Shown one piece after another: positions 4,032-59,603 of a DNA stretch of 64,000 nucleotides. How positions within the stretch are numbered: the stretch's first letter is position 1; each line of letters starts with the position of its first letter. The translations under genes were made by a program, and so were the position numbers. Location of the stretch: NCBI GenBank assembly GCA_021801255.1, contig JAJYYH010000036.1, positions 1 through 64,000 of the forward strand, in the 5' to 3' direction. The notes beneath the pieces were generated by a model. That model saw only the letters and a program-made list of their open reading frames with translations. It ran no database searches and was not told where the DNA came from. The DNA comes from Pseudomonadota bacterium (GTDB lineage: Bacteria > Pseudomonadota > Alphaproteobacteria > Acetobacterales > Acetobacteraceae).

Positions 4032-4808
4032 ATGGCGATGCCTGAATTCACCTTGCGCCAGCTACTCGAAGCCGGCGTGCATTTCGGTCACCATACGCGG
4101 CGCTGGGATCCGCGCATGGCGCCCTATCTGTTTGGCGTGCGCAACCAGGTGCACATCATCGACCTGCAACAGACGGTGCCGCTGCTCGACCGCGCGCTCC
4201 GCGCGGTGCGCGACGTGGTGGCCGGGGGCGGGCGGGTGCTGTTCGTCGGCACCAAGCGCGCGGCCGCCGAATATGTCGCCGACTCGGCCAAGCGCTGCGG
4301 CCAGTATTACGTCAACCACCGCTGGCTCGGCGGCACGCTGACCAACTGGAAGACCATCATCGCGAGCATCAAGCGGCTGCGCCAGATCGAGGACATGCTG
4401 AGCGGGGAGGTCCATGGCCTGACCAAGAAAGAGGTGCTGAACATCACCCGCACCCGCGACAAGCTGGAGCGCGCCTTGGGCGGCATCAAGGAGATGGGCG
4501 GGCTGCCCGATATCCTATTCATCATCGACACCAACAAGGAAAAACTCGCGGTCGAGGAGGCGACCAAGCTCGGTATTCCGGTGGTCGCCGTGCTCGACAG
4601 CAATTCCAATCCCCAAGGCGTCACCTATCCGATCCCTGGCAATGACGACGCGGTGCGCGCGATCGAACTCTATTGCGATCTCGTCGCCGGCGCCGTGCTC
4701 GATGGCATCAGCGCCGAGATGGCGGCCTCGGGCGCCGACCTCGGCGCCGCGCCGGAATTGCCGCCAGCCGCCCTCGCCGATCTTGCCCCCGAGCACCCCG
4801 CCGCCTGA
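4032..4808 (+). CDS. rpsB: 30S ribosomal protein S2
   Basis: A 258-aa protein, full length for bacterial S2. It begins with [20 protein letters not shown] and contains [38 protein letters not shown] and [14 protein letters not shown], the signature blocks of S2. The protein binds late on the 30S platform together with S1. An AAAGGAG ribosome-binding site precedes the ATG. It is followed by tsf, the usual partner, but the 126-bp spacer is filled by a hairpin repeat element whose first TGA is also the rpsB stop codon. Confidence 0.99.
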
Positions 4809-4910
4809 GCGTTTGAAAAAGCATGCCCCCGCGTCCCGGAATTGATCGGAAAAGAAGCAATGTTCCCAGAGAGTATTCGTTTTCAAGTGCGATTGATTTG
4901 CAGGCTCTGA
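4806..4910 (+). repeat. Dispersed hairpin repeat element, copy A (rpsB-tsf spacer)
   Basis: About 105 bp, the most diverged of four copies in the window (others at 17290, 52808 and, inverted, 59186). It starts at the rpsB stop codon (tgagcgtttgaaaaagcatg), has an imperfect pairing arm agagagtattcgttttcaag, and ends with the shared block cgattgatttgcaggctctg. The middle segment ggaattgatcgg also recurs in the other copies. It is AT-richer than the flanking genes. Lying between two highly expressed cotranscribed genes, it should be present in their mRNA as a stem-loop; any role in mRNA processing or partial termination is inference. Confidence 0.8.
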
Positions 4911-4934
4911 GCAAACCGAGACCGGGAGAAGAAA

Positions 4935-5855
4935 ATGGCTGAAATCACCGCCGCGTTGGTCAAGGAACTGCGCGAGAAAACCGGCGCCGGCATGATGGAT
5001 TGCAAGAAGGCGCTGGGCGAAACGAGCGGCGATCTCGAGGCCGCAACCGACTGGCTGCGCAAGAAGGGTCTCGCGGCGGCGGCGAAGAAATCCGGCCGCG
5101 TCGCCGCCGAAGGGTTGATCGCCGTCGCCTCGGTGCCGGCCAAGGCGGCGATGGTCGAGGTCAACGCCGAGACCGATTTCGTCGCACGCAACGAGCACTT
5201 CCAGCATTTTGTCGCAACCGTCGCCAAGGTCGCGCTGCATGTTGGGGAAGACATCGCCGCGATCGGTGCCGCCGCTTTTCCCGATAGCGGGCGAACGGTG
5301 GCCGAGGAACTGACCCATCTCGTGGCCACCATCGGCGAGAACATGTCGCTCCGCCGCGCCCGCGTGCTCGCCGTGCCGCAAGGCGTGGTGGCGAGCTATG
5401 TGCATGCCGCCCTCCGCCCCGGCCTCGGCAAGATCGGTGTGCTGGTCGCGCTCGAGGGCAATAGCGAGGGCCAGGCGCTGGAAACGCTCGGCCGTCAGGT
5501 CGGCATGCACATCGCCGCGACGCGGCCCGAGGCGATCGATATCGACGGCGTCGATCCCGCGGCGCTGCTGCGCGAGAAGGCGATCCTGGCCGAGCAGGCG
5601 CGGGCCTCGGGCAAGCCCGAGGCGATCATCGAGAAGATGGTCGAGGGCCGCATCCGCAAATACTATGAGGAAGTGGTGCTGCTGGAGCAGGTCTGGGTGC
5701 ATGACGGCGAGAGCCGGGTGCGCGCCGTGCTCGCGAAATCAGGGGCGCGGCTGGCCGGCTTCGCGCGGTTCCAGTTGGGCGAGGGCATCGCGCGCCAGGG
5801 CGGCGATTTCGCCGCCGAGGTCGCCGCCGCCGCCGGTCTCGCCGCAACCGAGTGA
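4935..5855 (+). CDS. tsf: Elongation factor Ts
   Basis: A 306-aa protein of usual EF-Ts length. The N-terminal UBA-like domain carries [20 protein letters not shown], and the core has [14 protein letters not shown], the two best EF-Ts signatures. The dimerisation-domain region includes [13 protein letters not shown] and the C-terminal GEGI. It is the nucleotide-exchange factor that recycles EF-Tu from GDP to GTP form in the cytoplasm. A ccgggagaagaaa ribosome-binding site precedes the ATG. It is second in the rpsB-tsf-pyrH-frr series. Confidence 0.99.
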
Positions 5856-5949
5856 GGCGCATCGGCGGCCCGCCGCGACGTCCGTCACGGCCCTTGTTCA
5901 TCGCCGGCCAGGCCAGTAGTTTGCGTTCGGCATGGGACGATCTCCTGGC

Positions 5950-6672
5950 ATGAGCGAGCGGCAACCCTATAAGCGCGTCCTTCTGAAAGTGTCCGGCGAG
6001 GCGCTGATGGGGGAGCGCGAGTACGGCCTCGATCCCGAAACCGTGCACCGCATCGCCAGCGATATCGGCGACGTCGTGGCGATGGGCGCCGAGGTCTGCC
6101 TGGTGATCGGCGGGGGCAATATTTTCCGCGGGGTTTCGGGAGCGGCCGGGGGCATGGATCGCGCCCAGGCTGACTACATGGGTATGTTGGCGACGGTGAT
6201 CAACGCGCTCGCGCTCCAGAACGCGCTGGAAAAGCGTGGAGTCGCGACCCGGGTGCAATCGGCCATTCCGATGGCCAGTGTCTGCGAGCCCTATATCCGC
6301 CGCCGTGCCGAGCGGCACATGGAAAAGGGCCGGGTGGTGATTTTCGCCGCCGGCACCGGCAACCCGTTCTTCACCACCGACACCGCGGCGGCCTTGCGCG
6401 CGGCCGAGATGAAGTGTGACGCGCTGCTCAAGGGCACCCAGGTCGATGGCGTCTATTCCGCCGATCCGCGCAAGGTCGCGGATGCCGAGCGCTACCACGA
6501 GCTGACCTATCTCGACGTGCTGTCGCGCGATCTCGCGGTGATGGACGCCGCGGCGGTCAGCCTGGCGCGCGAGAATGGCCTGCCGATCGTGGTGTTCAAC
6601 ATCAACGCTTCCGGCGCCTTCGCGCGCGTCATGCGCGGCGAGGGGCGTTTCACGACCATCGTCGAAGCCTAG
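5950..6672 (+). CDS. pyrH: UMP kinase
   Basis: A 240-aa amino-acid-kinase-fold enzyme that phosphorylates UMP to UDP in pyrimidine nucleotide synthesis; family members are hexameric and usually regulated by GTP and UTP. Seen here: [25 protein letters not shown], the [19 protein letters not shown] block, [13 protein letters not shown], and NGLPIVVFN. An in-frame ATG 18 bases upstream (5932) is also possible, but the chosen start gives the family's usual N-terminus just ahead of YKR. Spacing and order (tsf, pyrH, frr) match the conserved alphaproteobacterial operon. Confidence 0.98.
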
Positions 6673-6695
6673 GAAAATGTTCCGGGGGAATTGCC

Positions 6696-7262
6696 GTGGC
6701 GGCTGATCTCAATGCCTTGAAGCAGGATCTCTCCCGCCGGATGGAAGGCGCGCTGGAGACCCTGAAGCGCGAATTCGCCGGCCTGCGCACCGGGCGCGCG
6801 AGCCCCGCTTTGCTGGAGCCGGTGCGCGTCGAGGCCTATGGCGGCGAATTGCCGCTCAGCCAGGTCGGCACCATCGGCGTGCCGGAGGCCCGCATGCTCA
6901 CCGTTCAGGTCTGGGACCGGACCCTGGTCGGCGCGGTGGAGCGGGCGATCCGCGATGCCGGGCTCGGGCTCAACCCGGCCTCCGACGGCCAGCTCGTGCG
7001 GGTGCCAATCCCGATTCTGACGCAGGAGCGGCGGGTGGAACTCGCCAAGGCCGCCGCCCGCTATGCCGAGGGCGCGCGGGTCGCGGTACGCGGGGTGCGG
7101 CGCGATGGCATGGATCACATCAAGGCGCATGAGAAGAAACACGAAATCAGCGAGGACGATGTGGCGCATTGGTCGGATGAAGTGCAGAAACTAACCGATC
7201 ACTACATCAAGCGGGTCGACGAGATACTGGCGGAAAAGGAAAGGGACATCCGGCAGGTCTGA
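6696..7262 (+). CDS. frr: Ribosome recycling factor
   Basis: A 188-aa protein, normal RRF length. It uses a GTG start with tccgggggaa upstream. Diagnostic stretches are [34 protein letters not shown], and the C-terminal [25 protein letters not shown], with EF-G, splits the post-termination ribosome. It lies 23 bases after pyrH and 7 bases before uppS, so it is in the same transcription unit. Confidence 0.98.
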
Positions 7263-7269
7263 GGCTCTG

Positions 7270-8025
7270 ATGTCGGCCACCACCAAGACTGCGGCGCGCA
7301 AGGCTCTTCCGGCGGAGCTCGGGACGGTGCCGGCGCATGTCGCGATCATCATGGATGGCAACGGCCGCTGGGCCGCGTCACGCGGCCTGCCGCGGATCGC
7401 CGGCCATCGCGCCGGCGCCATGGCGGTGCGGCGCACCATCGAGGCGGCGCTGCACCATGGCGTCGCCTGGCTCACGCTCTATGCCTTCAGCAGCGAGAAC
7501 TGGCGCCGCCCAGCCGGCGAGGTCAACGACCTCACCACGCTGCTGCGCCACTATGTCAAAAGCGAGATCGCCGAACTCGCGGCCCATGGCGTGCGGCTCC
7601 GGGTGATCGGCGAGGCGGCGCGGTTTCCCGACGATATCCAGGCAAGCCTGGGCGCCGCCGAACGCGCGACGCGGGCCAATGCCCGGCTCAATCTCACCAT
7701 CGCGCTCTCCTATGGCGGGCGGGCCGAGATCGTTGCGGCGGCGCGGCGGGCGGCGGCGGCGATCGCGGCCGGCGAGATCGACCCCGCGGCGCTCGATGAG
7801 GCGGCGTTCGGCCGGCTGCTCTTCACCGACGGCATGCCCGATCCCGATCTCATCATCCGTACCAGCGGCGAACAGCGGCTCTCCAATTTCCTGCTCTGGC
7901 AAGCGGCCTATGCCGAGCTGGTGTTCCTGAACGTGCTGTGGCCGGATTTTGGCGCTGTACAATTCGCCGAGGCCCTGGCCGATTATGCCAGCCGGGAGCG
8001 CAGGTTCGGTGCCCGCCCCGGCTGA
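7270..8025 (+). CDS. uppS: Isoprenyl transferase (undecaprenyl diphosphate synthase)
   Basis: A 251-aa cis-prenyltransferase that extends farnesyl diphosphate with isopentenyl diphosphate to the C55 carrier used for peptidoglycan and polysaccharides. The catalytic Asp lies in IIMDGNGRWAASRGLPR; other family blocks are GHRAGAMAVR, TLYAFSSENWRRP, LSYGGRAEIV and the C-terminal PDLIIRTSGEQRLSNFLLWQ. Full length. It ends inside the start of cdsA (17-bp overlap), which suggests translational coupling. Confidence 0.98.
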   Translation: MSATTKTAARKALPAELGTVPAHVAIIMDGNGRWAASRGLPRIAGHRAGAMAVRRTIEAALHHGVAWLTLYAFSSENWRRPAGEVNDLTTLLRHYVKSEIAELAAHGVRLRVIGEAARFPDDIQASLGAAERATRANARLNLTIALSYGGRAEIVAAARRAAAAIAAGEIDPAALDEAAFGRLLFTDGMPDPDLIIRTSGEQRLSNFLLWQAAYAELVFLNVLWPDFGAVQFAEALADYASRERRFGARPG

Positions 8026-8890
8026 AACGCGGTCCTCATCATGGGGCGATCTGCGGGTGCGGGTGCTCTCGGCCTTGGTGCTGGCCCCGCTGGCGCTGGC
8101 CGGGATCTGGTTCGGCGCGGCCTTCTGGATGGCGCTGGTGCTGCTCGCGGCACTCGGCCTCACGGCGGAGTGGCTGGCGCTCTGCGCCCAGCCGGCGCCG
8201 AGCCCCCCGGCGCTCGCGGTGTTTTTTGCCGTCGCGGCCGCGACCCTGCTCACGGGAGCGGGTCTCGCCCAGGCAGGGCTCGCCGTGCTGGGGGGCGGGG
8301 CGGCGGTGGCCGCGATCGTGGCGACGCCGCCCGGCGACGCCGAGCCGGTCTGGCGCCGGGCCGCGCTTCTCGCCTTTGGCACTTTCTATATCGGGCTCGC
8401 GAGCGTCGCGCTGGTGTGGCTCCGCGGCGATGCCGGCACAGATCCTGGCGGCGGCGCGGGCACCGCCGCCGGGCGGGATAATATCTTTTTCCTGCTGCTG
8501 GTCATCTGGGCCAGCGATATCGGCGCCTATCTTGCCGGCCGGCTGATCGGCGGCCCGAAACTCGCCCCGGCGATCTCGCCGGGCAAGACCTGGTCGGGCG
8601 CGGCGGGCGGGCTGGTCGCCGCGATCGCCGCCGGAATCGCCGTCGCCGAGACCGCCTCGGCGCCGACGGCGCTCCATGCCGGGCTGATCGCCGCCGGCCT
8701 CGGCGTGGTGGCGCAGGGCGGCGATCTGCTCGAAAGTTTTCTCAAGCGCCAGTTTCGGGTTAAGGATTCAAGCCGGCTGATCCCCGGCCATGGTGGCCTG
8801 TTCGACCGCCTCGATGGCGTTCTGACGGCTGCCCCGGCGGCGGCGGTTTTGGCGCTCAGTCTCGGGCGAGGAGTTTTGCTGTGGACCTGA
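8009..8890 (+). CDS. cdsA: Phosphatidate cytidylyltransferase
   Basis: A 293-aa multi-spanning membrane enzyme making CDP-diacylglycerol from CTP and phosphatidate. The C-terminal CDS signature is clear: WASDIGAYLAGRLIGG, ISPGKTWSGAAGG, then GDLLESFLKRQFRVKD and IPGHGGLFDRLDG. Hydrophobic segments fill the N-terminal half. The GTG start at 8009 is chosen because it has a ggagcgcagg stretch upstream and a usual length; a longer frame to 7949 would run deep into uppS. It overlaps dxr by 10 bp. Confidence 0.96.
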   Translation: MPAPAETRSSSWGDLRVRVLSALVLAPLALAGIWFGAAFWMALVLLAALGLTAEWLALCAQPAPSPPALAVFFAVAAATLLTGAGLAQAGLAVLGGGAAVAAIVATPPGDAEPVWRRAALLAFGTFYIGLASVALVWLRGDAGTDPGGGAGTAAGRDNIFFLLLVIWASDIGAYLAGRLIGGPKLAPAISPGKTWSGAAGGLVAAIAAGIAVAETASAPTALHAGLIAAGLGVVAQGGDLLESFLKRQFRVKDSSRLIPGHGGLFDRLDGVLTAAPAAAVLALSLGRGVLLWT

Positions 8891-10083
8891 TCACACCCGC
8901 GCCTGATGCCGCCTTGCCGCCGGCGCCAGCGGGGCCGCGCAGCGTCACCGTGCTCGGCAGCACCGGCAGCGTCGGCACCCAGACGCTGTCCCTGCTCCAG
9001 GATCGCGCGCGCTTCCGCGTGCGCGCTTTGGTCGCCGGGCGCAATGTCGCGCTGCTCGCCGCCCAGGCCCGCCAGTTCGGCGCCGAATGGGCGGTGATCG
9101 CCGACCCCACCGCCTATCCGGCGCTCCGCGAGGCGCTCGCGGGCAGCGGGGTGCAGAGCGCCGCCGGCGCCGAGGCGGTGGTGGTGGCGGCGGCGCTGCC
9201 GGTCGATTGGACGATGGCGGCGATCACCGGGGCGGCCGGCCTGAAGGCAACGCTCGCCGCCATCGGTGCGGCGCGGGCCGTGGCGCTGGCCAACAAGGAG
9301 GCGCTGGTTTCGGCCGGCGAGGTCATGCTGCGGGCAGTCGAGGCGGCCGGGACGGTGCTGCTGCCGGTCGATTCCGAGCACAACGCGGTGTTCCAGGCGC
9401 TCGCCGACGGCAATCGCGCCAGCCTGGAAAAAATCGTCCTCACCGCCTCGGGCGGGCCGTTCCGCACCGCCTCGATCGCGGAGATGCGGGCGGCGACGCC
9501 GGAGATGGCGCTCCGTCATCCGATATGGTCGATGGGCGCCAAGATCAGCATCGATTCCGCCACGCTGATGAACAAAGGGCTCGAAGTGATCGAGGCCTCG
9601 CGGCTGTTCGCGCTCAGCGAGGCGCGCATCGAGGTGGTCGTGCATCCGCAATCGGTCATTCATGGCATGGCGCATTTCAGCGATGGCAGCGTGCTGGCGC
9701 AGCTCGGCTCGCCGGATATGCGGGTGCCGATCGCGCACGCCCTGGCCTGGCCCGCGCGCATGGCCACACCGGCGCCGCGGCTCGATCTCGCGGCGATCGG
9801 CCGGCTCGATTTTGCGCCGCCCGATGCCACGCGCTTTCCCGCCCTCGCCCTGGCGCGGGCCGCCTTGCGCGCGGGCGCCGGCGCCCCCACTGTTCTCAAT
9901 GCCGCGAACGAGGTCGCGGTCGCCGCCTTTCTTGCCCGCCGTATCGGTTTCCTGGCGATTGCCGAGCTGGTGGAGCGGGTGCTCGCACGGCTCGGCGCGC
10001 CGGCGGCGGACGATCTCGCCGCCGTGCTCGCGCTCGATGGCGAGGCCCGCGAGCTGGCCGAAAATCTGGTCGGAGTGTGTTGA
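8881..10083 (+). CDS. dxr: 1-deoxy-D-xylulose 5-phosphate reductoisomerase
   Basis: A 400-aa NADPH-dependent enzyme converting DXP to MEP, the committed step of the non-mevalonate isoprenoid pathway that feeds uppS. It has the Rossmann motif VTVLGSTGSVGTQTL, the VALANKEALVSAG block, metal/substrate motif DSEHNAVFQ, SGGPFR, and DSATLMNKGLEVIEA with HPQSVIHGM. GTG start inside the end of cdsA; the stop overlaps the rseP start (TGATG). Full length for the family. Confidence 0.98.
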   Translation: MDLITPAPDAALPPAPAGPRSVTVLGSTGSVGTQTLSLLQDRARFRVRALVAGRNVALLAAQARQFGAEWAVIADPTAYPALREALAGSGVQSAAGAEAVVVAAALPVDWTMAAITGAAGLKATLAAIGAARAVALANKEALVSAGEVMLRAVEAAGTVLLPVDSEHNAVFQALADGNRASLEKIVLTASGGPFRTASIAEMRAATPEMALRHPIWSMGAKISIDSATLMNKGLEVIEASRLFALSEARIEVVVHPQSVIHGMAHFSDGSVLAQLGSPDMRVPIAHALAWPARMATPAPRLDLAAIGRLDFAPPDATRFPALALARAALRAGAGAPTVLNAANEVAVAAFLARRIGFLAIAELVERVLARLGAPAADDLAAVLALDGEARELAENLVGVC

Positions 10084-13887: not shown

Positions 13888-14844
13888 ATGCGATTTCCGC
13901 TTTCTCTCGGGGTGCTGCTCGGCGCCGCGATCCTTACGCAAACCACGCCAGGGCGGGCGCAGCAGGGCCAGGACTGGTTCGTGCCCGGCCAGCAGCAGCC
14001 GCAGAAATCGACGGCGCCGCGCACCAATACCCATGTCAACCCGCGCAACGCCCAACCTCCGGCGGCGGGTGTCGGTGCCGGCGCCGAAGCCGCGGCGCCG
14101 CCGCCCGGCCCGCCGCCGCAGCAGCAGATGCAACTGCAACTGCCCCCGGTCCCGCAATTGCCGCCGCTGCCCAAGGGCCCGGCGCCGCCGGCGGCGGTGA
14201 TCGGCGTGCTCGGCGTGCCCGAGGTGATGCGCGCCTCGACGGCGGCGCAGGAGGTCGAACGCGCCATCGGCGGGCGCCGCGCCAAGCTCAACCAGGACGC
14301 CCAAAAGGAACAGGCCGCCTGGCGCGACATGCAGCAGGCGCTGGTCAACGAGCGCAGCAAGCTCAACCCCGAGCAGATCCGCGCCCGCGAACGCGCGCTT
14401 CAGGATCGCATCACCAACGCGCAGCGCCAGTTCCGCGATCGCAACCGCATCATCCAGGAGGAGGGGCAATACGCCCTCGGCCAGATCGAGCAGACCTTGG
14501 TCGCGGTGATCCGCCAGATTTCGGAGAGCCGCGGCATGAACCTCGTGCTGCATCGCCAGCAGGTGGCGCTCAACGTCAATGAATTCGACATTACCGCCGA
14601 GGTCGCCGGAGAGCTCAACAAGGTGCTGCCGAGCGTGACCATCCCGGCCGAGGGCCAGGAGCCGCCGATGGTGCCGGTGAAGCCACCCGGACAGCCATCG
14701 GGGCAACCCCCAGTGGCGGCAGCCAACCCCGGCGCCGTGCCCGCCGGCACCCCGTCCGCCGGCACCCCTTCCGCTGCGGGCGCGCCGCCCGCGGCGACCC
14801 CGCCGCCGACCGCTCCCGGAGCGCCGGTGGCCAACGGCAAATAG
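13888..14844 (+). CDS. OmpH/Skp-family periplasmic chaperone with Pro-rich extensions
   Basis: A 318-aa exported protein. Signal peptide about 24 residues (LLGAAILTQTTPGRAQ). The central 170 residues are the OmpH/Skp coiled coil (VIGVLGVPEVMRASTAAQEV, then a charged helix ending GMNLVLHRQQVALN). Skp-like proteins shield unfolded outer-membrane proteins on their way to BamA, encoded just upstream. Compared with usual Skp (about 160-200 aa) it has a Pro/Gln/Ala-rich N-terminal spacer and a 90-residue Pro/Ala-rich tail with short repeats such as PSAGTPSA. The tails are low-complexity and of unknown role. Confidence 0.9.
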   Translation: MRFPLSLGVLLGAAILTQTTPGRAQQGQDWFVPGQQQPQKSTAPRTNTHVNPRNAQPPAAGVGAGAEAAAPPPGPPPQQQMQLQLPPVPQLPPLPKGPAPPAAVIGVLGVPEVMRASTAAQEVERAIGGRRAKLNQDAQKEQAAWRDMQQALVNERSKLNPEQIRARERALQDRITNAQRQFRDRNRIIQEEGQYALGQIEQTLVAVIRQISESRGMNLVLHRQQVALNVNEFDITAEVAGELNKVLPSVTIPAEGQEPPMVPVKPPGQPSGQPPVAAANPGAVPAGTPSAGTPSAAGAPPAATPPPTAPGAPVANGK

Positions 14845-15976: not shown

Positions 15977-16489
15977 ATGGATGCAACAGCGAAAGAAGCC
16001 AGTCCCGGCACGGTGGCGGGGGGAGGACAAACGGCGGGGGGGCGAACGATTGATATCGCCGGCATCCGGCACGCCATTCCGCACCGCTATCCGTTCCTGC
16101 TGATCGATCGGGTGGTCGACCTGATCCCCAATGTCGCGGCGATCGGGATCAAGAACGTCACCGTCAACGAGGCGTTTTTCCAGGGCCATTTCCCCGGCCA
16201 TCCGGTGATGCCGGGCGTGCTGATCATCGAGAGCATGGCGCAGACCGCGGCCGTGCTCGTGGTCGAGACGCTGGGGCCGGACTCGGCGGGCAAGCTGGTC
16301 TATTTCATGTCGATCGAGGGCGCGAAATTCCGCCGCCCCGTCGGTCCTGGCGATCAGTTGCGCATCCATGTCGCGAAGCAGCGGAGCCGTGGCAATGTGT
16401 GGAAATTCCACGCCATCGCCCGGGTCGATGGCGGCGCGGTCGCCGAGGCGGTCTATAGCGCCATGATCATGGATCAGCGGGCGGCGTGA
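15977..16489 (+). CDS. fabZ: 3-hydroxyacyl-[acyl-carrier-protein] dehydratase FabZ
   Basis: A 170-aa hot-dog-fold dehydratase of type II fatty-acid synthesis. Core motifs: HAIPHRYPFLLIDRV and NEAFFQGHFPGHPVMPGVLIIE, holding the catalytic His and Glu. The first 25 residues (Gly/Thr-rich) are an extension beyond the usual start near IDIAGI. Located between lpxD and lpxA, where it sets the balance between 3-hydroxyacyl-ACP for lipid A and fatty-acid elongation. The stop overlaps the lpxA GTG start. Confidence 0.97.
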   Translation: MDATAKEASPGTVAGGGQTAGGRTIDIAGIRHAIPHRYPFLLIDRVVDLIPNVAAIGIKNVTVNEAFFQGHFPGHPVMPGVLIIESMAQTAAVLVVETLGPDSAGKLVYFMSIEGAKFRRPVGPGDQLRIHVAKQRSRGNVWKFHAIARVDGGAVAEAVYSAMIMDQRAA

Positions 16490-17292
16490 GCGCGGTTCAT
16501 CCGAGTGCGCTGGTGGCGCTGGGCGCGGAACTCGGCGCCGGCGTCGAGATCGGCCCGTGGTGCCAGATCGGCCCCGAGGTGGTGCTGGAGCCGGGCGCGC
16601 GGCTGATCTCCCATGTCGTGGTCGATGGCCGCACCCGCATCGGCGCCGAGGCCGTGCTCTATCCCTTTGCCACCGTCGGCCTGGCGCCGCAGGATCTGAA
16701 ATATCGCGGCGAGCCGACTGCGACGGTGATCGGCCCACGCACCGTGGTCCGCGAGCACTGCACCATCCATCGCGGCACCGCGACGGGCGCCGGCATCACC
16801 CGCATCGGCGCCGATTGCCTGCTGATGGCGGTGGCCCATGTGGCGCATGACTGCGTGATCGGCGATGGCGTGATCATCGCCAACAACGTGGTGATGGGCG
16901 GACATGTCGAGATCGGCGATGGCGCGGTGATCGGCGGTGCCGCGGCGCTCCACCAATTCGTGCGGATCGGCCGCGCCGCCATGGTGGGCGGCGTCTCGGG
17001 GGTCGAGGCGGATGTCATTCCCTATGGCAGCGTGATCGGCAATCGCGCGCGCCTCGCCGGGCTCAATCTCGTGAAGCTGAAGCGCGCCGGGGTGGCACGC
17101 GCGCAGATCCACCATCTGCGCGCGGCGTTTCGCACGCTGTTCCAGGCCGAGGGGGTATTCGCCGATCGCCTCGCCCTGGTCCGCGCGCGGTATGGCGAGG
17201 ATCCGCTGGTGGGGGAAATCCTTGCCTTCATCGCCGCCCCCAGCCATCGCGGCCTGATCCGCGCCGCGCGCGCCGATCCCGCCGAAGACTGA
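16486..17292 (+). CDS. lpxA: Acyl-[ACP]-UDP-N-acetylglucosamine O-acyltransferase
   Basis: A 268-aa first enzyme of lipid A synthesis, a left-handed beta-helix trimer. Seen: VHPSALVALGAELGAGVEIG, FATVGLAPQDLKYRGEP, TIHRGTATG, VAHVAHDCVIGD (catalytic His region) and the C-terminal RTLFQAEGVFADRL. GTG start in a GTGA overlap with fabZ. In related genomes lpxI and lpxB often come next; here the gene ends in a hairpin repeat and two minus-strand genes follow. Confidence 0.98.
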   Translation: MSAVHPSALVALGAELGAGVEIGPWCQIGPEVVLEPGARLISHVVVDGRTRIGAEAVLYPFATVGLAPQDLKYRGEPTATVIGPRTVVREHCTIHRGTATGAGITRIGADCLLMAVAHVAHDCVIGDGVIIANNVVMGGHVEIGDGAVIGGAAALHQFVRIGRAAMVGGVSGVEADVIPYGSVIGNRARLAGLNLVKLKRAGVARAQIHHLRAAFRTLFQAEGVFADRLALVRARYGEDPLVGEILAFIAAPSHRGLIRAARADPAED

Positions 17293-17389
17293 GAGTTTGG
17301 AAAAGAATGCCCTCGCGCCCCAGAATCGATCGAAAAATCAATGTTTCAGAGGGCACTCTTTTTCAAGCTTGATGCACTTTCGTCCTCTG
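17290..17389 (+). repeat. Dispersed hairpin repeat element, copy B (after lpxA)
   Basis: About 100 bp beginning at the lpxA stop codon (tgagagtttggaaaagaatg). Left arm ttggaaaagaatgccctc pairs with right arm gagggcactctttttcaa in 16 of 18 positions, around a loop of about 30 bases with the recurrent cgatcgaaaaatcaatg. The right end (gatgcactttcgtcctctgg) is the least conserved of the four copies. It could act as a bidirectional stem-loop between convergent lpxA and the minus-strand lipoprotein gene. Confidence 0.85.
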
Positions 17390-17418
17390 GGGGTTTGACA
17401 TCCTCTGGGGGTTTGGAA
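17383..17418. repeat. Two-copy 18-bp tandem repeat
   Basis: Two consecutive units of tcctctgggggtttgaca and tcctctgggggtttggaa at the right edge of hairpin element copy B. The repeated tcctctgg is the element's own terminal sequence, so this looks like a partial duplication of its end. Confidence 0.85.
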
Positions 17419-17430: not shown

Positions 17431-17799
17431 TCAATGATGCCCGGCGAAGCCACCATGTCCGGCGAAGCCGTGTCCTATAAAGCCATGCCCGCCGAATCCG
17501 TGCCCCCCGAACCCATGCCCGGCAAAACCACCATGGCCCCAGAAACCATGCCCGGCAAAGCCATGCCCCCAACCACCCCAACGATCACCCCAACCACCCC
17601 AACCACCCCAGCCGCCCCAGCCGCCCCAGCCGCCCCAGCCGCCGATGCCATCCCCCATGTAGCCGGGCCCTATGTCACCGCAAGCGGCCAGCAAAAGAAC
17701 GGAGAAGACGAGGGCGCCCGCCACGGCCCTGACCGTGACCCGGCACGGGCGCGATCGGGACGCCGCGATGGCCTTCCGGCCTCGCTTAGTCGCGATCAT
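17431..17799 (-). CDS. Gly/Trp/His-rich putative lipoprotein
   Basis: A 122-aa protein on the minus strand. A basic N-terminus and hydrophobic stretch end in a lipobox-like LLAAC at about residue 38, suggesting a lipid-anchored secreted protein; residues in between are ordinary for a signal peptide. The mature part is almost entirely low-complexity: six tandem GGW units, then about ten GHGF/GHGG-type units ending in GHH. The DNA shows matching 9-bp repeats (17571-17643). His- and Gly-rich repeats can bind metals, but no function is known to me. Its ATG lies within the end of the upstream gene, so the two are cotranscribed. Confidence 0.7.
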   Translation of the reverse strand: MIATKRGRKAIAASRSRPCRVTVRAVAGALVFSVLLLAACGDIGPGYMGDGIGGWGGWGGWGGWGGWGGWGDRWGGWGHGFAGHGFWGHGGFAGHGFGGHGFGGHGFIGHGFAGHGGFAGHH

Positions 17800-21299: not shown

Positions 21300-21460
21300 A
21301 AAGCGGAGCTGCCCGGTGCGTCAGGCTGTTCATCCCCGGGGCCAGTAAGCGTTCTCCAGGGAGCTGGCTCTGCCGGGATCGTGGTCTCGGTATCTGGCGC
21401 CCACCTGCACAAGCAGGCCTTGGGAGGATGTGGTGCCAACGGCCAGGGCGGCTCCGCGCT
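21300..21460 (+). ncRNA. ssrS: 6S RNA
   Basis: The zapA-fthC gap is the usual place for 6S RNA. Its ends can form a closing stem: gcggagctgccc (21303-21314) pairs over 12 positions with gggcggctccgc (21446-21457), with one G-U pair. Between them lie paired segments around a larger open region (ggggccagtaagcgttctccagggagctggc), as expected for the RNA that mimics an open promoter and sequesters sigma70 RNA polymerase. The length of about 160 nt fits. Exact ends are uncertain. Confidence 0.8.
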
Positions 21461-50899: not shown

Positions 50900-52810
50900 A
50901 TGGTTGCAATGACTTCAAGCTGGATCTCGCCCCAAGGTGGCAATTGGCTGACGCCGGCCAACTGGTCGTCCGGCGGCGTGCCCAGTTCTGGCCAATCCGC
51001 CGCCATCGGGCTCTCCGGCAGCTATCTCGTGAGCCTCGAGCAATCGGCCACGCTCGCCAGTTTGACGCTCGATGCCGCCGGCGCCACGGTCCTGCTCGCC
51101 CCGGCTTTCCCGCTCGCCAATGTCACGCTCGATCTTGCCGGCAGCCTCGACCTCGCCGCCGGCACGCTGATGCTCGCGGGCGGCGAAATGCCGGTTGCGA
51201 CCGCGCTCGGCGGCAGCGCCGGGGCGACCGAGATCATCACCTATGCGGCCCTCGATCTCGGCGCCGGCCTGACCGGCGGCGGGGTGCTCGATGCTGCCTT
51301 CGCGGTGATCACGGCCACCGGCAGCGAGGTTTTCGACCCGGCGCAAATCACCCTCGGCGATCAGGCGGCGCTGCTGGCCGGCGCCGGCACGCTGACGCTC
51401 GGCCCCGCGGCGGCGGTGACGCTGGGCGGGGTGGGCGATGTCCTCGGCGGCAATCTGGTCAATGCCGGCACGCTGGTTTTCACCGGCGCCACCGAGATCA
51501 ACCCCTATGGCGCCGCCGATTTCACCAATACCGGCACGATCGCCGTGGTTTCCGGCACGGTTGCCGGGAATTTCGCCGATTTCGTCAATCAGGGCGAGAT
51601 CACCGTGGCCGGCACGCTGACCCTGGGCGCCGGGAGTTTTGCCAACCAAGGCGAGGTGGTCATCGCCCCTGGCGCGGCGCTCACGCTCGACCTCGCCATT
51701 GCTCCGGCGCCGGGCGCGCTCGGCGTGATCGATAATGCGGGCGGCAAGGTCAGCGTCGTCATCGCGGGTTCCGGGGCCACCCTCGCCTCATCCCCGGCCG
51801 CGGCGGCGATCCCGCCCCCCGCCTGCTTCCTCGCCGGCACGCGCATCGCGACCGCAACGGGCGAGATCGCGGTCGAATGTCTCCGCCCCGGCCAGCTTGT
51901 CGCGACCGCAAGCGGCGGCCTCGCGCCGGTGGTCTGGATGGGCGAGCGCCGCATCGATTGCCGGCGCCATCCCCGCGCGTCGGAGGTCGAGCCGGTGCGC
52001 ATTCTCGCCGACGCCTTCGCCCCTGGCCTGCCACGGCGCGATCTCTGGCTCTCGCCCGACCACGCCATCGCCATCCTCTCCGAGGCGGCGGGTGCAGCGC
52101 CGTTGCTGGTGCCCGCCAAATGCCTGCTCAATGGCGCCACCGTGGTGCAGGAGCGGGTGGCGACGGCGTGGTATTTCCATGTCGAGCTGCCCTGCCACGA
52201 CATCATCCGCGCCGAGGGGCTGGCGGTCGAGAGCTATCTCGATACCGGCAATCGCGGCGATTTCGCCAATGCCGGCAGCGTCACCACGCTCTATCCCGAT
52301 TTCGTGCCGAAAACCCGGGCGCATTCCTGCGCGCCGCTGGTGCGCCAGGGCGCGGCGGTGACGCGGCTGCGGCGGCGGCTGCTGGCGCGCGCCGAGACGC
52401 TCGGCTGGCGGCCCCGCGTTGCGGCCGATCCGCATCTCCGGATCGGCGCGCGGGTGATCCGCCCGGCGGCGCAACAGGGCGCGCTCCTGCGGTTTCTCGT
52501 GCCCGCCGGCACGGCGCGCCTCACGCTCGCCTCGCGCGCCGGCATGGCGCTCGAGACCACGCCGGCGCGGCTCGACTACCGCCGGCTCGGCGTGCGCCTG
52601 GGCGGCGCCGTGTTCAACGGCCGCCCGATCCCGCTCGACGGCCCGGCCTTCGGCGCCGGGTTTTACCCGCTCGAGGGGCGCGACACCGCGCGGCCCTGGC
52701 GCTGGAGCGATGGCGCCGGCGAACTCGCCCTGCCGCCCCTGCGCCACGGGGCGGTGCTCGATCTGCTGGTGCTCGACGCGATCCCCGGCCACCGCCGCAG
52801 CGCCGCCTGA
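50900..52810 (+). CDS. Hint-domain surface protein
   Basis: A 636-aa protein sharing its N- and C-terminal modules with the giant Hint protein at 23251. N-terminus GGNWLTPANWSSGGVP; short Gly/Ala-rich beta-repeat section with NAGTL, NTGTI and NQGEI turns; Hint_2 domain from about residue 309 (PACFLAGTRIAT, LSPDHAI, VESYLDTGNRGD). The last 190 residues form an additional domain (SCAPLVRQGAAV through AGFYPLEGRDTARPWRWSDG) absent from the giant. Hint domains can self-cleave at the first Cys. No signal peptide. A second ATG at 50909 is possible. Confidence 0.88.
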   Translation: MVAMTSSWISPQGGNWLTPANWSSGGVPSSGQSAAIGLSGSYLVSLEQSATLASLTLDAAGATVLLAPAFPLANVTLDLAGSLDLAAGTLMLAGGEMPVATALGGSAGATEIITYAALDLGAGLTGGGVLDAAFAVITATGSEVFDPAQITLGDQAALLAGAGTLTLGPAAAVTLGGVGDVLGGNLVNAGTLVFTGATEINPYGAADFTNTGTIAVVSGTVAGNFADFVNQGEITVAGTLTLGAGSFANQGEVVIAPGAALTLDLAIAPAPGALGVIDNAGGKVSVVIAGSGATLASSPAAAAIPPPACFLAGTRIATATGEIAVECLRPGQLVATASGGLAPVVWMGERRIDCRRHPRASEVEPVRILADAFAPGLPRRDLWLSPDHAIAILSEAAGAAPLLVPAKCLLNGATVVQERVATAWYFHVELPCHDIIRAEGLAVESYLDTGNRGDFANAGSVTTLYPDFVPKTRAHSCAPLVRQGAAVTRLRRRLLARAETLGWRPRVAADPHLRIGARVIRPAAQQGALLRFLVPAGTARLTLASRAGMALETTPARLDYRRLGVRLGGAVFNGRPIPLDGPAFGAGFYPLEGRDTARPWRWSDGAGELALPPLRHGAVLDLLVLDAIPGHRRSAA

Positions 52811-52911
52811 AAGTTTGCAAAAGAATGCCCTCTTGCTCGGAAATCGACGAGAAAAACCCATTGTTCCCAGAGGGCGTTCTTTCTCAAGGTCGACTGATTT
52901 CCAGGCTCTGA
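52808..52911 (+). repeat. Dispersed hairpin repeat element, copy C
   Basis: 104 bp starting at the stop codon of the Hint-protein gene. Left arm ttgcaaaagaatgccctc and right arm gagggcgttctttctcaa pair except for three positions; the loop holds aaatcgacgagaaaaacccattg; right block cgactgatttccaggctctg. It ends 13 bases from the convergent SDR gene. Confidence 0.85.
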
Positions 52912-54587: not shown

Positions 54588-54654
54588 AGAGCGACGCGGG
54601 AGCCTCGGTGCGCGGCAAGCAGGCCTCCGATGAGACCCCAAGGGCTCGGCGGGA

Positions 54655-56733
54655 TCAAGGGTGGGAATAATTACCGAGATCAACGGCGCTGGCCTGGGCC
54701 TTGGCCAGATCAGCCGGTTGAGCCGCGACGGCGTGAGCCGCCCCATGATCCCGTCCACGACGCCCTTTTGGTAGAAAATCCGTCACCGTTGCATAGTCTA
54801 TTCGGGTGGCGAGGCGTGCCGAGAAATCGAGGACGAAAGTGGGGTTGTCCTTAGCCAAAAGCGGCGAAAAATGGGGGTCGGTGCCACGAAGAAAGTCTTT
54901 GTATCGGCGTCTGAACAAGGCCGAGTCGCGAGGATGGCGATCACGGCCATCGAGGCTTTTGCCGCGGCTTGCCGACTCGTGGTGCACGAGAATGGCTTCC
55001 GCGCAGTTCACGACGCGATAGCCTTTCTGGCCAATCCGCAAGCAGAGATCTGTGTCATTGTAGCCCACCTCGAGCTTCTCGTCGTAGCCGCCCACGGCAT
55101 GAAAAACTTCCGCGGGCACCAGCATGCAGGCCGCCGTGACGGCGCTATATTCGCGTGTTGCGTGAAGCGAGGCGCCGTAGCCTGCCTCGTCCGAGCGGAA
55201 CAGAACCGTCTTGAAGGCGTGCTCGGCGCTGTCGTGCATGCCGACAATCACCCCTGAATGTTGGACGGTGCCGTCTGGGTAGAGGAGGGTTGCGCCTACC
55301 GCGCCAACATCGGCGCGCATCGCCAGGTCGAGCATGGCATCGAGCCAGCCCGGTTTGGTGGCCTCGATGTCGTTGTTAAGGAACAAATAGTAGTCGTAGC
55401 CGGCGCCGCTGTTAAATACCGCGTAGTTGTTAATGGCGCTGTAGTTGAATTTTCCCTGATAGGATAAAATACGCGCCGCGCCGGAATGCTCCAATTCGTG
55501 CAGATAGCTCAAGGTCTCTGGATCGTCGGACTGATGATCGATGATGACGAGATCGAGATCAAGACCCTTCGTTGTCTCTCGCAGGGTTTCGATCGAGAGG
55601 CGTAGCAGACCCGCCTGGTTCTTCGTCGGAATGACGCCGAGGATGCGACCCGAGGAGACACCAAAATATCTTACGTTGAAGGTGTTGAACGAGGGGCCCG
55701 GGCGCACGTCGGCATCATCAAAACCGATCCGGCGAAGATGCTCCGTTTTAAGGGCGCAAGTGGTAAAATTTATTGCATCTTGTTTATAAGTGCGGCCTGT
55801 GCTCTCCGGATGGGTGCGCCACCGGTAGAGGATATCCGGTATGTGCGTTACATTTTTCGCGATTTCCAGGGCGCGCAGCACGAAGTCAATGTCTTGCGAG
55901 ATGGTCAGCGACGTGTTGAGGCCGCCGATCCTTCGCGCGAGGGCGGACCTGACCGCCACGGGATGCACGAAGAACGGGTAGGAAAGGTAGTAGGTGTGGG
56001 AAAAGGCCGGGCGGAGCTGGACGCCGATGATCTCTTCCAGGTTCTCGCTGGTGACGACCTCGTCCCCGTAGAGAATATCCGCGTCCTCGGAAAAAGCCGC
56101 ATCGCTCAGGCGAGCCAGGCCATGGGGCTCAAGCATGTCATCGTGGTCCATGAAGAGCAAATATTCGCCGGTTGCCTGCTCGATCCCGATATTCGTCGCG
56201 CGCGAAACACCCTGGTTTTGCTCAAGCGTTATATATTTCACCCGCGGGTCGTTACTGGCGGCGCGGGCCAGGATGGCGTTCAGCAAATCATCTTTCGAAC
56301 CGTCGTCAACGCAGATCAGCTCCCAATGGGGATAGGTCTGACCGACGACACTCGCAATCGCCTCTGCAAGCCATTCCGGCCGCACTTTATAGACCGGCAT
56401 GACAATGCTAAACTGGGCGGAACCCCGACATTGGATGGCCCCGTAGTCCGCTGCCGCGCGATAGCGGGCAAACCAAGACGTCGGGCTGATCTGGTTGGCT
56501 GGATTAATCTGATCAACTCTTCGCACCGTCCGTTTTATGCCGGAAAGTCCGCGGCTGCGATAAATCCAGGCGACTCTCTTGATTGTATTTCTTAATCCCC
56601 CAGCGTGTTTTATGGAAAACCTCAGGACATACCAAACCCGTTTCATTTTATTTTTAATAACCAGCAGCGGCTTAATGACCCTCCAGCTTAGCGAACCCTT
56701 GAGCGATGTGATTTGTGTATCGGATCTGGGCAC
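54655..56733 (-). CDS. Glycosyltransferase with two GT2 domains
   Basis: A 692-aa protein with two GT-A (family 2) domains. First: FSIVMPVYKVRPEWLAEAI, then CVDDGSKDD, FMDHDDMLEPHGL. Second: ILGVIPTKNQAGLLRLSI, IIDHQSDDPETL, LFLNNDIEATKPGWLDAML and GYNDTDLCLRIGQKGYRVV. Such tandem enzymes build repeating sugar chains such as rhamnans. GTG start 15 bases after the stop of the upstream glycosyltransferase gene; the two form an operon. Visibly AT-richer than neighbours. Confidence 0.9.
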   Translation of the reverse strand: MPRSDTQITSLKGSLSWRVIKPLLVIKNKMKRVWYVLRFSIKHAGGLRNTIKRVAWIYRSRGLSGIKRTVRRVDQINPANQISPTSWFARYRAAADYGAIQCRGSAQFSIVMPVYKVRPEWLAEAIASVVGQTYPHWELICVDDGSKDDLLNAILARAASNDPRVKYITLEQNQGVSRATNIGIEQATGEYLLFMDHDDMLEPHGLARLSDAAFSEDADILYGDEVVTSENLEEIIGVQLRPAFSHTYYLSYPFFVHPVAVRSALARRIGGLNTSLTISQDIDFVLRALEIAKNVTHIPDILYRWRTHPESTGRTYKQDAINFTTCALKTEHLRRIGFDDADVRPGPSFNTFNVRYFGVSSGRILGVIPTKNQAGLLRLSIETLRETTKGLDLDLVIIDHQSDDPETLSYLHELEHSGAARILSYQGKFNYSAINNYAVFNSGAGYDYYLFLNNDIEATKPGWLDAMLDLAMRADVGAVGATLLYPDGTVQHSGVIVGMHDSAEHAFKTVLFRSDEAGYGASLHATREYSAVTAACMLVPAEVFHAVGGYDEKLEVGYNDTDLCLRIGQKGYRVVNCAEAILVHHESASRGKSLDGRDRHPRDSALFRRRYKDFLRGTDPHFSPLLAKDNPTFVLDFSARLATRIDYATVTDFLPKGRRGRDHGAAHAVAAQPADLAKAQASAVDLGNYSHP

Positions 56734-56748
56734 GATTGACTTATTCCA

Positions 56749-59088
56749 TTATCCTACGCTGCTTGAATGGTCATGCGCTTGTTCGAACAAGGCGCCACAG
56801 CGGCGACGTCCGACTGGCGGCCCGCTCATAATCATGCGCACCTCTTCGACAAAAGCGTCTGGATCACAATCTCGCTTCACGCGTTCAAGCGCGGCCTGGC
56901 GGAGGCGTTGCCAGACCGTCTCGCTCTGATAAAGCCGCGCGCAGGCCTCGGCAAGGGCTGATGGCGTCGCGCCCACCAGAATCTCGGCATCATGTGTCCA
57001 GCCGAGCTGTTCGGCCAGCAAGGGGGTGGTGACCACCGGCACCCCTTTTGCCGCAGCTTCATGCACTTTGTGGGGAATACCCGCAGCGTAGCGGGTGGGC
57101 GCAACGAAGACCCGGGCGCACTCATAAAGCGCAGATAAATCGTCGATGCGCTGTAGCACGCGAATGCGTGGGTCGGAAAGAGCGAGGACGCGCGGCGCAG
57201 TACACCGGCCCGCGACCAAGAGTCCATAACGGTCTCCGATCAGATTGTCCAAAAGTGGCATAACCGTCCTGGCGAACCACACAATAGAATCTGCGTTCGG
57301 AGATAGGTCGGAGTCGAGCGCGCCGACGAATAGAAAATCGCGGCGCTCACCAAATCCCGACACTGTCGGCTCGACGCGAAGCGCGTGGCCAAGCACACGC
57401 ACATCAGCGCATCCTGCTTTCCGAAAGGCCCTGGCATCGGATTGCGAAACGGCGATTACCGTCTGCGCCGTACGGGCCAAATCCATTTCCGTGCGCAGCA
57501 TCGCCTCGCGCCGCGAGCGCGAGAGCGGCCGGCCGACAATTTCGCGGCGCCGCCATTCCCGCGGCGCAAAAATTGCCTCGGCGTCGTAGATGATGCGGGT
57601 CACAATTTTGTTTGGTGCGCTGGCGAGAAAATCTCGCATGTTGTGCGGTCGGCTTATCATAATGGAATCGTAGTAATTCTGTCGTTCGGCCAAAAATGGT
57701 CGCAAACCATTTTGGCCTAGGCCAAGCATGAATTCGATGCCGCGCGGAAACGCCGTATGGATCGCCGCGTTGTTGTCATGCGGAAACAGCACCGGATAGA
57801 ATGTGACGAACCAACCATCGGCAGCCAGTGTGCGCAGAATCTCCGCGGCGCGCGGATAACCTGCGCCAAGCGAAGGATAAGGGACGCGGTCATCGATCAC
57901 GAGCACGCGCCGATCAGCCCCGCGGGCGCGCGCCACGAGCGGTGACGCATCGGCGGGCCAGTGGCCGGACTGCAGCGCTTCGCGATGGCGGGTAACAAAG
58001 AGTTCTTGATGCGCGCGCTGCAATTCCAAGGCTGCCTCGAGTTTCACGGCGCTCCCAAACTCGTAATGGTCGACGACCGCATTCGGCTCATAAATGACGC
58101 GATAACCCGCAGCACGCAGCCGCATGCAAAAATCCGTCTCCTCGTAATAAGCCGGAGCAAAGACCGGATCAAAACCGTCGAGCTCCGCAAAAACCGAATG
58201 GCGTACCAGCAAAAAAGCCCCCGAGCAGTAATCCACCTCACGCTGAAACTGAAATTCGGGCGCTGCCGGGTCCGCGCCACGGCCATAACCGAGACAGGAG
58301 CCATCACGCCAAATGATGCTGCCCGCTTCCTGAAGCCGACCATCGGGTAGAATGATCGGCCCGCCGACCGCACCATTGCTCGGATCGGAGCAAAGCGTAT
58401 CAAATGCTGCGCGCAGCGAGCCTAGCCGCAGACAGGCGTCATTGTTCAGCAAAAGCAGCGTCTTGCCGCGGGCAAGAGCGGCTCCTTGATTGACCGCCGC
58501 AAGAAAATGCCGATTTTCCGCATTGCGCACGATCCGGGCACCATCCAACCGCTCCAAAAGTGCGGTGGTCTCGTCGGTCGAGGCATTGTCGATGATGATC
58601 ACTTCCGTAGCCAAATCGACCGTATCGGCAATCGACTGCAAACAGGCGAATGTGAGCGGCGCCTGATTGAACAACACCAATAAAATTGACACATCCGGCG
58701 CCGTCGATGCTGGAAGTGCCAAGCGCTCGTCAGTATCGAGGAACGCCGCCAACTCCGCCGCGGCGCCGACCCGCAGGGCCGCCTTTGCCGTTGCCGTTGT
58801 CGGCGCCTCAACCGGCGCAAAGTTTTTGGCGCGACGCCGGTTCAAAAAACGGAAATAGCCTGAACGCTTGAGCCAGTTGACCACGCGGCGCGCGGGCCCG
58901 CTCCAACGCCAGACGGTGGACTGGTAGATCGCTTGTAATTCCGCCTCAAGCTGGGCCGATTTCTGCTCAAGCATCCGCTCGTTTTCCCGCGCCGTGCGCA
59001 GCGCGCGCCGCAGCGATGCCACTTCGTCGGCTTCGCGGATCCGACCATCCCAGGAGGGTGGTGTCGAACGGGACAATTCATCGGACAT
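56749..59088 (-). CDS. Glycosyltransferase with coiled coil, GT2 and GT4-like domains
   Basis: A 779-aa protein. N-terminal coiled coil (RRALRTARENERMLEQKSAQLE) and a SxVWRWSGPARR segment common in polysaccharide glycosyltransferases; GT2 domain from DVSILLVLFNQAPLTFACL, with IIDNASTDET and LLNNDACLRLGSL; GT4/GT-B domain from LVIDDRVPYPSLGAGYPRA through VAPTRYAAGIPHKVHEAAAKGVPVVTT. Probable surface polysaccharide synthesis. Its upstream region carries hairpin repeat copy D in inverted orientation. Confidence 0.9.
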   Translation of the reverse strand: MSDELSRSTPPSWDGRIREADEVASLRRALRTARENERMLEQKSAQLEAELQAIYQSTVWRWSGPARRVVNWLKRSGYFRFLNRRRAKNFAPVEAPTTATAKAALRVGAAAELAAFLDTDERLALPASTAPDVSILLVLFNQAPLTFACLQSIADTVDLATEVIIIDNASTDETTALLERLDGARIVRNAENRHFLAAVNQGAALARGKTLLLLNNDACLRLGSLRAAFDTLCSDPSNGAVGGPIILPDGRLQEAGSIIWRDGSCLGYGRGADPAAPEFQFQREVDYCSGAFLLVRHSVFAELDGFDPVFAPAYYEETDFCMRLRAAGYRVIYEPNAVVDHYEFGSAVKLEAALELQRAHQELFVTRHREALQSGHWPADASPLVARARGADRRVLVIDDRVPYPSLGAGYPRAAEILRTLAADGWFVTFYPVLFPHDNNAAIHTAFPRGIEFMLGLGQNGLRPFLAERQNYYDSIMISRPHNMRDFLASAPNKIVTRIIYDAEAIFAPREWRRREIVGRPLSRSRREAMLRTEMDLARTAQTVIAVSQSDARAFRKAGCADVRVLGHALRVEPTVSGFGERRDFLFVGALDSDLSPNADSIVWFARTVMPLLDNLIGDRYGLLVAGRCTAPRVLALSDPRIRVLQRIDDLSALYECARVFVAPTRYAAGIPHKVHEAAAKGVPVVTTPLLAEQLGWTHDAEILVGATPSALAEACARLYQSETVWQRLRQAALERVKRDCDPDAFVEEVRMIMSGPPVGRRRCGALFEQAHDHSSSVG

Positions 59089-59603
59089 GTTCCGGGCCTG
59101 ACCAAACTTGAGAGCGCGTTCAATAATCTGGAGATAAAATTCCGTTTGAGATGCCGCGGCGAGAGAGTTCAGAACGCGGACGCGCTCAGAACGTGAAAAT
59201 CAATCGAACTTGAAAATAATGCCCTCTCGAGATAGTGGTTTCCTCCGTCGATTCCCGGGTAATAGGGCATTCTTTCAAACTCTCAGCCGGTACGTTAAAA
59301 TCAGGAGAGATTTCTCCTCGCGAAAGGAAGACAGCCGACAATTTTGCTGTGCGGCTCAGCGGCCATGCCGGACTCAAAGGCCGAAGATTTTTTGCCAATA
59401 TGCCGCAACCGCAAAACCAAACAGGGGCCTCATCATTCGGCAAAAACCAGCGACCATTCGGTAATCCCTAAAGAGGAAGCGCAAAACTGTCAACAAGAAT
59501 GTGATAGCCGGCCTGCCTGCCGACTTTCTCTTCCTCTCCGAACCTGTTACTTCGAGCCTCGGCACAAAGCCCGTCTCAACGACGCCGAACCAAAGGTAAT
59601 ACT
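59089..59603. other. 515-bp gap between divergent glycosyltransferase genes
   Basis: Holds hairpin repeat copy D (59186-59285). To its right (59286-59603) the sequence is AT-richer than the genes, with a possible long-range stem agaggaag/cttcctct (about 59470 and 59530). I find no gene; several small open frames here lack ribosome-binding sites or homology I recognise. Promoters for both flanking genes should lie here. Confidence 0.6.
59186..59285 (-). repeat. Dispersed hairpin repeat element, copy D (inverted)
   Basis: Read on the minus strand it starts tgagagtttgaaagaatg, has arms tttgaaagaatgccct and agggcattattttcaa, loop gaatcgacggagg, and right block cgattgattttcacgttctg. It aligns end to end with copies A-C. 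Unlike those, no gene ends at its first TGA. Confidence 0.85.

What the first reader, a model, noticed from the sequence alone, without database searches (positions are those of the whole stretch)
4806..59285. A four-copy dispersed hairpin element of about 100-105 bp
Copies at 4806-4910, 17290-17389, 52808-52911 (plus) and 59186-59285 (minus) align end to end: a left TGAgagTTTG edge, arm around AAAGAATGCCCT, loop with a GAATCGAtCG-like block, complementary arm gagggcattcttttTCAA, and a right block CGATTGATTT..CTCTGA. Arms vary together in places, which suggests the stem is kept as RNA or DNA structure. The ends form rough inverted repeats. It resembles a REP/MITE-type element mobilised by an enzyme elsewhere, but I know no named family.
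Basis: seen in the sequence. Interest (0 to 1): 0.75.

Follow-up and report, generated by a model that had tools for sequence, protein, structure and literature searches.

The report
Mobile hairpin repeat at gene ends
This roughly 100-letter hairpin sequence has spread to about a hundred places in this bacterium's genome, mostly right at the stop signal of a gene and pointing the same way as that gene, and it resembles a known class of small mobile repeats but carries a different tag and has no identified enzyme to move it.

Summary
The window copies belong to a 101-bp element with at least 96 copies in this 3.18 Mb genome, none found in five congeners. It is in 28 of 397 sampled family genomes, own included (17 of 102 genera), and in no other of 385 class genomes. 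Anatomy: CTGA, 22-bp stem, ~37-nt loop, 20-nt tail ending CTGA. Across genera the stem covaries (58 double-change cells, 16.6 in shuffles). Within this genome it mostly decays, so the hairpin seems needed for moving more than for the host. Of 173 copies, 122 start at an in-frame TGA stop; of 161, the upstream gene is on the same strand for 143, opposite for 5, absent for 13. Most of the stop-codon effect follows from a CTGA(G/C) target plus a preference for the first ~100 nt after a gene end. Best reading: a non-autonomous, REP-like mobile palindrome with a CTGA tag, so far seen only in Acetobacteraceae, moved by an unidentified enzyme. Searches for Y1, IS5-type and reverse-transcriptase mobilisers gave no consistent candidate. 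New variant of a known kind.

The parts
4806..4910 (+). copy 1 of the element, between rpsB and tsf; begins at the rpsB TGA stop
17290..17389 (+). copy 2; begins at the TGA stop of an lpxA-like gene (16486-17292); right end mutated to CTCTGGG
52808..52911 (+). copy 3; begins at the TGA stop of a Hint-domain gene; faces a short-chain dehydrogenase gene on the other strand
59186..59285 (-). copy 4; between two divergent glycosyltransferase genes, not at a stop codon
17405..17420 (+). CTGGGGGTTTGGAAAA, 88% match to the left edge of copy 2: probable remnant of a second, tandem copy
   Evidence: family D2

Best explanation
It is a non-autonomous mobile palindrome that works like a REP element. The unit is about 101 bp: a CTGA in the target is followed directly by a 22-bp hairpin with a ~37-nt loop and a 20-nt tail that itself ends in CTGA. 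Shown: it has moved over evolutionary time (empty sites, patchy spread, per-genome subfamilies, a head-to-tail tandem of period 101). Inferred: an enzyme supplied in trans recognises the hairpin and ends and inserts the unit 3' of CTGA(G/C), acting with strand polarity, because relative to the element the target is nearly always TGA and hardly ever TCA. Insertions land in, or survive in, the first ~100 nt after a gene in sense orientation, where the stop codon is the commonest CTGA. The only copy found in G186, close to the consensus, lies on a contig with a MobF relaxase, which suggests that conjugative DNA can carry it between genera.
For: 96 places in own genome, none in 5 congeners (none with the second model either). 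28 of 397 family genomes, own included, 17 of 102 genera. rpsB-tsf site empty in four congeners, with the CCTGA stop already there; copy 2 site empty in three. Stem: 95.1% of 811 cells paired, 58 double-change cells against 16.6 +- 4.7 in shuffles and 5-11 with slid partners, which pair 33-53%. Nearest neighbour in the same genome for 137 of 139 copies, shuffles at most 55. Ends: left TGA 85 of 93, right TGA 69 of 93 own copies. Base after the element G 76%, C 20%, T 0% of 122 stop-type copies, against 31, 28 and 21% at 325 natural CTGA stops. Tandem pair C22:94511/94612, period 101. Stem pairing mostly decays within the genome. Relaxase contig.
Against: No mobiliser found: Y1_Tnp in 2 of 11 carriers and not flanked by the element. 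No longer copy with a gene inside among the six right ends outside the 93 copies: four look left-truncated, two internally deleted (in L280 the contig ends soon after). Strand polarity could also appear if TGA is simply the element's own terminal sequence. Selection after insertion could produce the sense bias. In the own genome pairing, though decaying, still slightly exceeds every shuffle. 36 of 173 copies are not within 100 nt of a same-strand gene end, and copy 4 is in a divergent region.
Confidence: 0.55

Rival explanations
1. A classical MITE: terminal inverted repeats GAGnYTTG.. flanked by a 3-bp TGA target-site duplication, moved by a DDE transposase of the IS5 type (TNA targets, recalled).
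For: Ends form an imperfect inverted repeat and TGA stands on both sides; the target preference C-TGA-G is symmetric in outline.
Against: The middle base hardly varies, and the two triplets agree on something other than TGA in only 1 of 204 copies (CGA/CGA; the copies from other genomes were partly fetched by a pattern that fixes the GA). TCA, expected if orientation were random, is nearly absent. IS5-type genes are most numerous (18) in congener G001, which lacks the element, and none of 30 inspected loci (of 43 hits) showed matching ends, by a coarse inverted-repeat scan.
Confidence: 0.25
2. A host RNA element (terminator, attenuator or mRNA stabiliser) kept by selection at gene ends.
For: Sense orientation and gene-end placement; hairpin with covariation; own copies pair slightly more than any of 500 shuffles (1,653 cells against 1,632 +- 6, maximum 1,649); sits inside operons such as rpsB-tsf, atpG-atpD, gcvT-gcvH.
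Against: Absent from the same sites in congeners. In this genome 283 stem cells are broken by a one-sided change against 27 compensated (16.6 expected, maximum 28). A strong terminator inside atpG-atpD is implausible (inference); the terminator scan found none in L007 1400-1800 but allows loops of only 3-8 nt.
Confidence: 0.12
3. Insertion at the RNA level (reverse splicing or similar, then reverse transcription), giving sense orientation.
For: Upstream gene on the same strand for 143, opposite for 5 of 161.
Against: RVT_1 in only 2 of 10 carriers tested, one of them below the cut-off; 2 of 10 genomes without the element also have it. I recognise no splice-site features (not tested).
Confidence: 0.06

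Closest known systems
GTAG-tagged REP elements with RAYT (PMC3733652; PMC2817692)
   Same: Tetranucleotide tag at the foot of a palindrome, high copy number, gene-end placement between unidirectional or convergent ORFs; GTAG REPs often supply the TAG stop codon (section 15 of PMC3733652 read).
   Different: 101 bp instead of 20-40 bp, tag CTGA instead of GTAG, loop ~37 nt, 3' tail with a second CTGA, nearly fixed orientation to the upstream gene, no consistent RAYT.
CGTC-tagged REPs of Alphaproteobacteria (PMC3733652)
   Same: Alphaproteobacterial palindromes without a dedicated transposase.
   Different: Different tag and size; that paper reports them missing in Acetobacteraceae (passage).
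MITEs, and Bru-RS / RIME-type ~100-bp palindromes of Alphaproteobacteria (recalled)
   Same: Size, imperfect terminal inverted repeats, dispersed copies.
   Different: No parent IS with the same ends found; no variable target duplication. Their sequences were not compared here.
IS200/IS605-type HUH transposition (recalled)
   Same: Hairpin recognition, insertion 3' of a short motif, strand polarity.
   Different: Y1_Tnp found in only 2 of 11 carriers.

Membership tests
REP (GTAG/CGTC superfamilies) | 20-40 bp palindrome | tested here: not met
   unit 101 bp, 22-bp stem, loop 36-38 nt
REP (GTAG/CGTC superfamilies) | unpaired GTAG or CGTC tag at one end | tested here: not met
   CTGA at the foot in 160 of 175 regex-selected copies (the regex partly fixes it); left TGA in 85 of 93 model-selected own copies
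REP (GTAG superfamily) | associated RAYT (Y1_Tnp) gene | tested here: not met
   2 of 11 carriers; no element in the loci around them
MITE | terminal inverted repeats | tested here: met
   11 positions, 89.4% paired
MITE | target-site duplication | tested here: inconclusive
   TGA on both sides but nearly invariant, so it cannot be told from element sequence
MITE | parent IS with the same ends | tested here: inconclusive
   none found: no long copy among the right ends of the own genome and 30 of 43 IS5-type hits inspected; other IS families not tested
IS200/IS605-derived element | hairpin substrate and 3'-of-motif insertion | tested here: inconclusive
   anatomy fits; cleavage not testable
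Intrinsic terminator | short-loop GC stem followed by T run | tested here: not met
   0 found in L007 1400-1800, the only stretch scanned
Rfam families | score above gathering threshold | tested here: not met
   3 hits in window, none at the element

The most novel reading that the evidence does not exclude
Insertion itself is coupled to transcription: a hairpin element that is placed in sense, at the exposed strand at the 3' ends of genes, by an enzyme type not yet linked to REP or MITE elements, so that the element's tag and the TGA stop codon coincide by mechanism and not by selection.
Probability: 0.2. Interest if true: 0.8.

Novelty: new variant of a known kind. Interest (0 to 1): 0.52.

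Why it matters
It adds a palindromic mobile element with a new tag to a bacterial family where the CGTC-type REPs of Alphaproteobacteria are reported missing. Its target (CTGA, usually a stop codon) and nearly fixed sense orientation make a clear question testable: do small palindromes reach gene ends because they are aimed there or because only those insertions survive? The contrast seen here, a stem that covaries between genera but mostly decays inside a genome, is an argument for mobility over host function that can be applied to other REP-like repeats.

Tried and rejected
Rejected or weakened: a chance palindrome; a four-copy curiosity; a strong terminator (inference from operon sites; the scan is blind to long loops); an Rfam RNA; a RAYT-driven REP; an IS5-type MITE with a parent among the loci inspected; an RT-driven element. 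An exact stem pattern in genome contigs gave nothing; a looser left-edge pattern gave 95 stretches, of which 80 were listed; one (Geitlerinema, L134) carries only the edge and is taken as chance. Nothing in viral contigs by that pattern, nor in plasmids or phages by blastn with one stretch that holds two copies. A possible pairing of a loop AATCGA with the tail was not tested. That the whole placement is stop-codon recognition was tested and weakened: inside the gene-end zone the stop is favoured only 2.2-fold (p=0.011), while the zone itself is favoured 6.9-fold.

Limits. Genes were called by my own codon-usage script trained on the window. The copies used for placement were chosen by a regex that drops degenerate copies (64 of 93 own copies). 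Null sites come from the same fetched loci. Shuffles do not keep relatedness. Three of the 96 own places (C36:33687, C31:9159, C15:36352) were not fetched. Wide scans used strict filters and scored few candidates per genome. Paper searches run; judged by titles and abstract starts, none listed this family.

Full report
Observation. The four copies are real and align end to end. Three start exactly at a TGA stop codon: of rpsB (copy 1, with tsf starting 24 nt after the element), of an lpxA-like gene (copy 2) and of a Hint-domain gene (copy 3). Copy 4 lies between divergent genes and not at a stop.

Extent. A model from ten copies gives 96 places at E<=1e-4 in the 3.18 Mb genome, probably a lower bound since 150 of 1,781 candidates were scored, and none in five congeners. 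A second model from 37 diverse copies finds the element in 28 of 397 genomes of the family, own included, in 17 of 102 genera, again in none of the five congeners, and in 1 of 385 genomes drawn from the class, the own one. Both large scans used strict filters and scored about ten candidates per genome. A left-edge pattern in named genomes gave 95 stretches, 80 listed, from MAGs named Acetobacteraceae or only Proteobacteria, from Roseomonas acroporae, and one from Geitlerinema taken as chance. No match was found in viral contigs, plasmids or phages.

Anatomy. The unit reads CTGA, then a 22-bp stem (GAGTTTG..GAATGCCC with GGGC.TTC..CAAGTTC), a loop of 36-38 nt and a tail of 20-21 nt, GATTnnTTTnCAnGCTCTGA. 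A tandem pair with period 101 shares the CTGA. Across 37 diverse copies 95.1% of 811 stem cells are paired; 58 cells carry changes on both sides against 16.6 +- 4.7 in shuffles (0 of 500 reach it), and slid partners pair only 33-53% with 5-11 such cells. The shuffles ignore relatedness; the slid control does not. Pair 25-67 occurs as G-C, U-A, A-U, C-G and G-U. The two ends also form an 11-position inverted repeat with 89.4% pairing but weaker covariation (score reached by 5 of 500 shuffles).

Conserved to move more than to stay. In the 93 fetched own copies, 1,964 stem cells with letters on both sides include 283 broken by a one-sided change and only 27 two-sided changes that keep the pair, against 16.6 +- 3.6 in shuffles, maximum 28. 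Against this reading, the total of paired cells, 1,653, lies just above every shuffle (1,632 +- 6, maximum 1,649); subfamily structure or some selection on single copies could do that. Still, pairs are kept between lineages far more clearly than between copies of one genome. Copies are most similar within a genome: the nearest neighbour is in the same genome for 137 of 139, against at most 55 in shuffles (60 own copies and 79 from eight other genomes). This is what repeated amplification of a master copy predicts.

Placement. CTGA sites outside genes are stops in 29, 21 and 25% (Fisher odds ratios 6.9, 8.8 and 8.9). The upstream gene within 400 nt is on the same strand for 143, opposite for 5 and absent for 13 of 161; null sites 310, 126 and 146 of 582. 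For non-stop copies alone, 28 same and 5 opposite against 145 and 126, p=6e-4. Split finer over 173 copies: 122 at the stop, 15 within 100 nt of a same-strand gene end, 36 elsewhere; null 187, 51 and 433. Being in the zone is favoured 6.9-fold (p=2e-25), being exactly at the stop only 2.2-fold (p=0.011). The base after the element is G in 76% and T in none of 122 stop-type copies, against 31% and 21% at 325 natural CTGA stops, so the target is CTGA(G/C). Aimed insertion and survival cannot be told apart here.

Sites. Copies lie inside operons: rpsB-tsf (own), after infC (L218, own), atpG-atpD (L258) and gcvT-gcvH (L253), gene names by NCBIfam, and between two genes that I read by eye as CoA-transferase subunits in two genera (L245, L251; loops differ, so taken as independent). 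Such sites speak against a strong terminator.

Empty sites. At rpsB-tsf four congeners have the CCTGA stop and no element. At copy 2 three congeners have no element, and their gene ends with TAA or TAG about three codons later in the alignment, so there the element may have supplied a new stop. Flanks of copies 3 and 4 gave no match in the stretches fetched.

Ends. By the covariance alignment, the left triplet is TGA in 85 and the right in 69 of 93 own copies, both in 63; in other genomes both are TGA in 98 of 111, and one copy has CGA on both sides (many of the 111 were fetched with a pattern that fixes the GA). A duplicated target with a free middle base would vary concordantly; it does not. 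TGA is therefore either required in the target or borne by the element.

Mobiliser. Y1_Tnp occurs in 2 of 11 carriers; the own one lies in frame inside a long ORF, with equal hits in two congeners, and no element lies in the loci around these genes. IS5-type genes are most numerous in an element-free congener and none of 30 inspected loci of 43 hits showed matching ends in a coarse scan, though one element lies beside a broken one in G080. RVT_1 is in 2 of 10 carriers and 2 of 10 others. Of six right ends outside the 93 copies, four look left-truncated and two internally deleted; none belongs to a longer element with a gene. The only copy found in G186, close to consensus, lies on a contig with a MobF relaxase, an SSB gene and an IS1595 transposase, a plausible vehicle.

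Literature. PMC3733652 (abstract, passages and section 15 read) describes GTAG REPs that often provide the TAG stop and REPs near the 3' ends of unidirectional and convergent genes, and states that CGTC REPs are missing in Acetobacteraceae. PMC2817692, PMC4666352 and PMC2884548 were seen as passages. Bru-RS, RIME and IS200/IS605 are recalled.

Verdict. A CTGA-tagged, REP-like mobile palindrome, so far seen only in Acetobacteraceae. It works like a REP or MITE but fails REP membership on size, tag and RAYT; MITE membership is open for want of a parent element and a testable duplication.

Noticed in passing
L076 (G000:C42, around 14049-14276): A RAYT-type Y1_Tnp sits in frame inside a long ORF that looks (by eye) like a DNA methylase, with REP-like peptide repeats; equal hits are in congeners G001 and G004.
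   Followed up: partly
L084, L120 (236 bp), L159 (117 bp): Variants whose loop is replaced by a CCCTCTCC..GGAGAGGG insert, in the longer two followed by GGGGTGAGG, resembling the triplex (TMECO) motif of E. coli in PMC4666352 (passage).
   Followed up: partly
G000:C63:15346-15451: A copy of another subfamily (TGTGAAAG type), closest to a copy in MAG G2_14 (score 71 against 49 for the best other own copy): a separate acquisition or an old relic.
   Followed up: partly
G000 C48:43816-55125: Four copies within about 11 kb, a local cluster.
   Followed up: no
L280 (G000:C2): A left-truncated copy whose remaining tail now supplies the stop codon (TTG GAT TGA) of the upstream gene.
   Followed up: no
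window 21303-21458, 3936-4022: 6S RNA and the rpsB sRNA family (RF01815) reach Rfam thresholds.
   Followed up: no
window 17383-17415 and 17437-17469: Short tandem repeats just after copy 2 (spacing 18).
   Followed up: no
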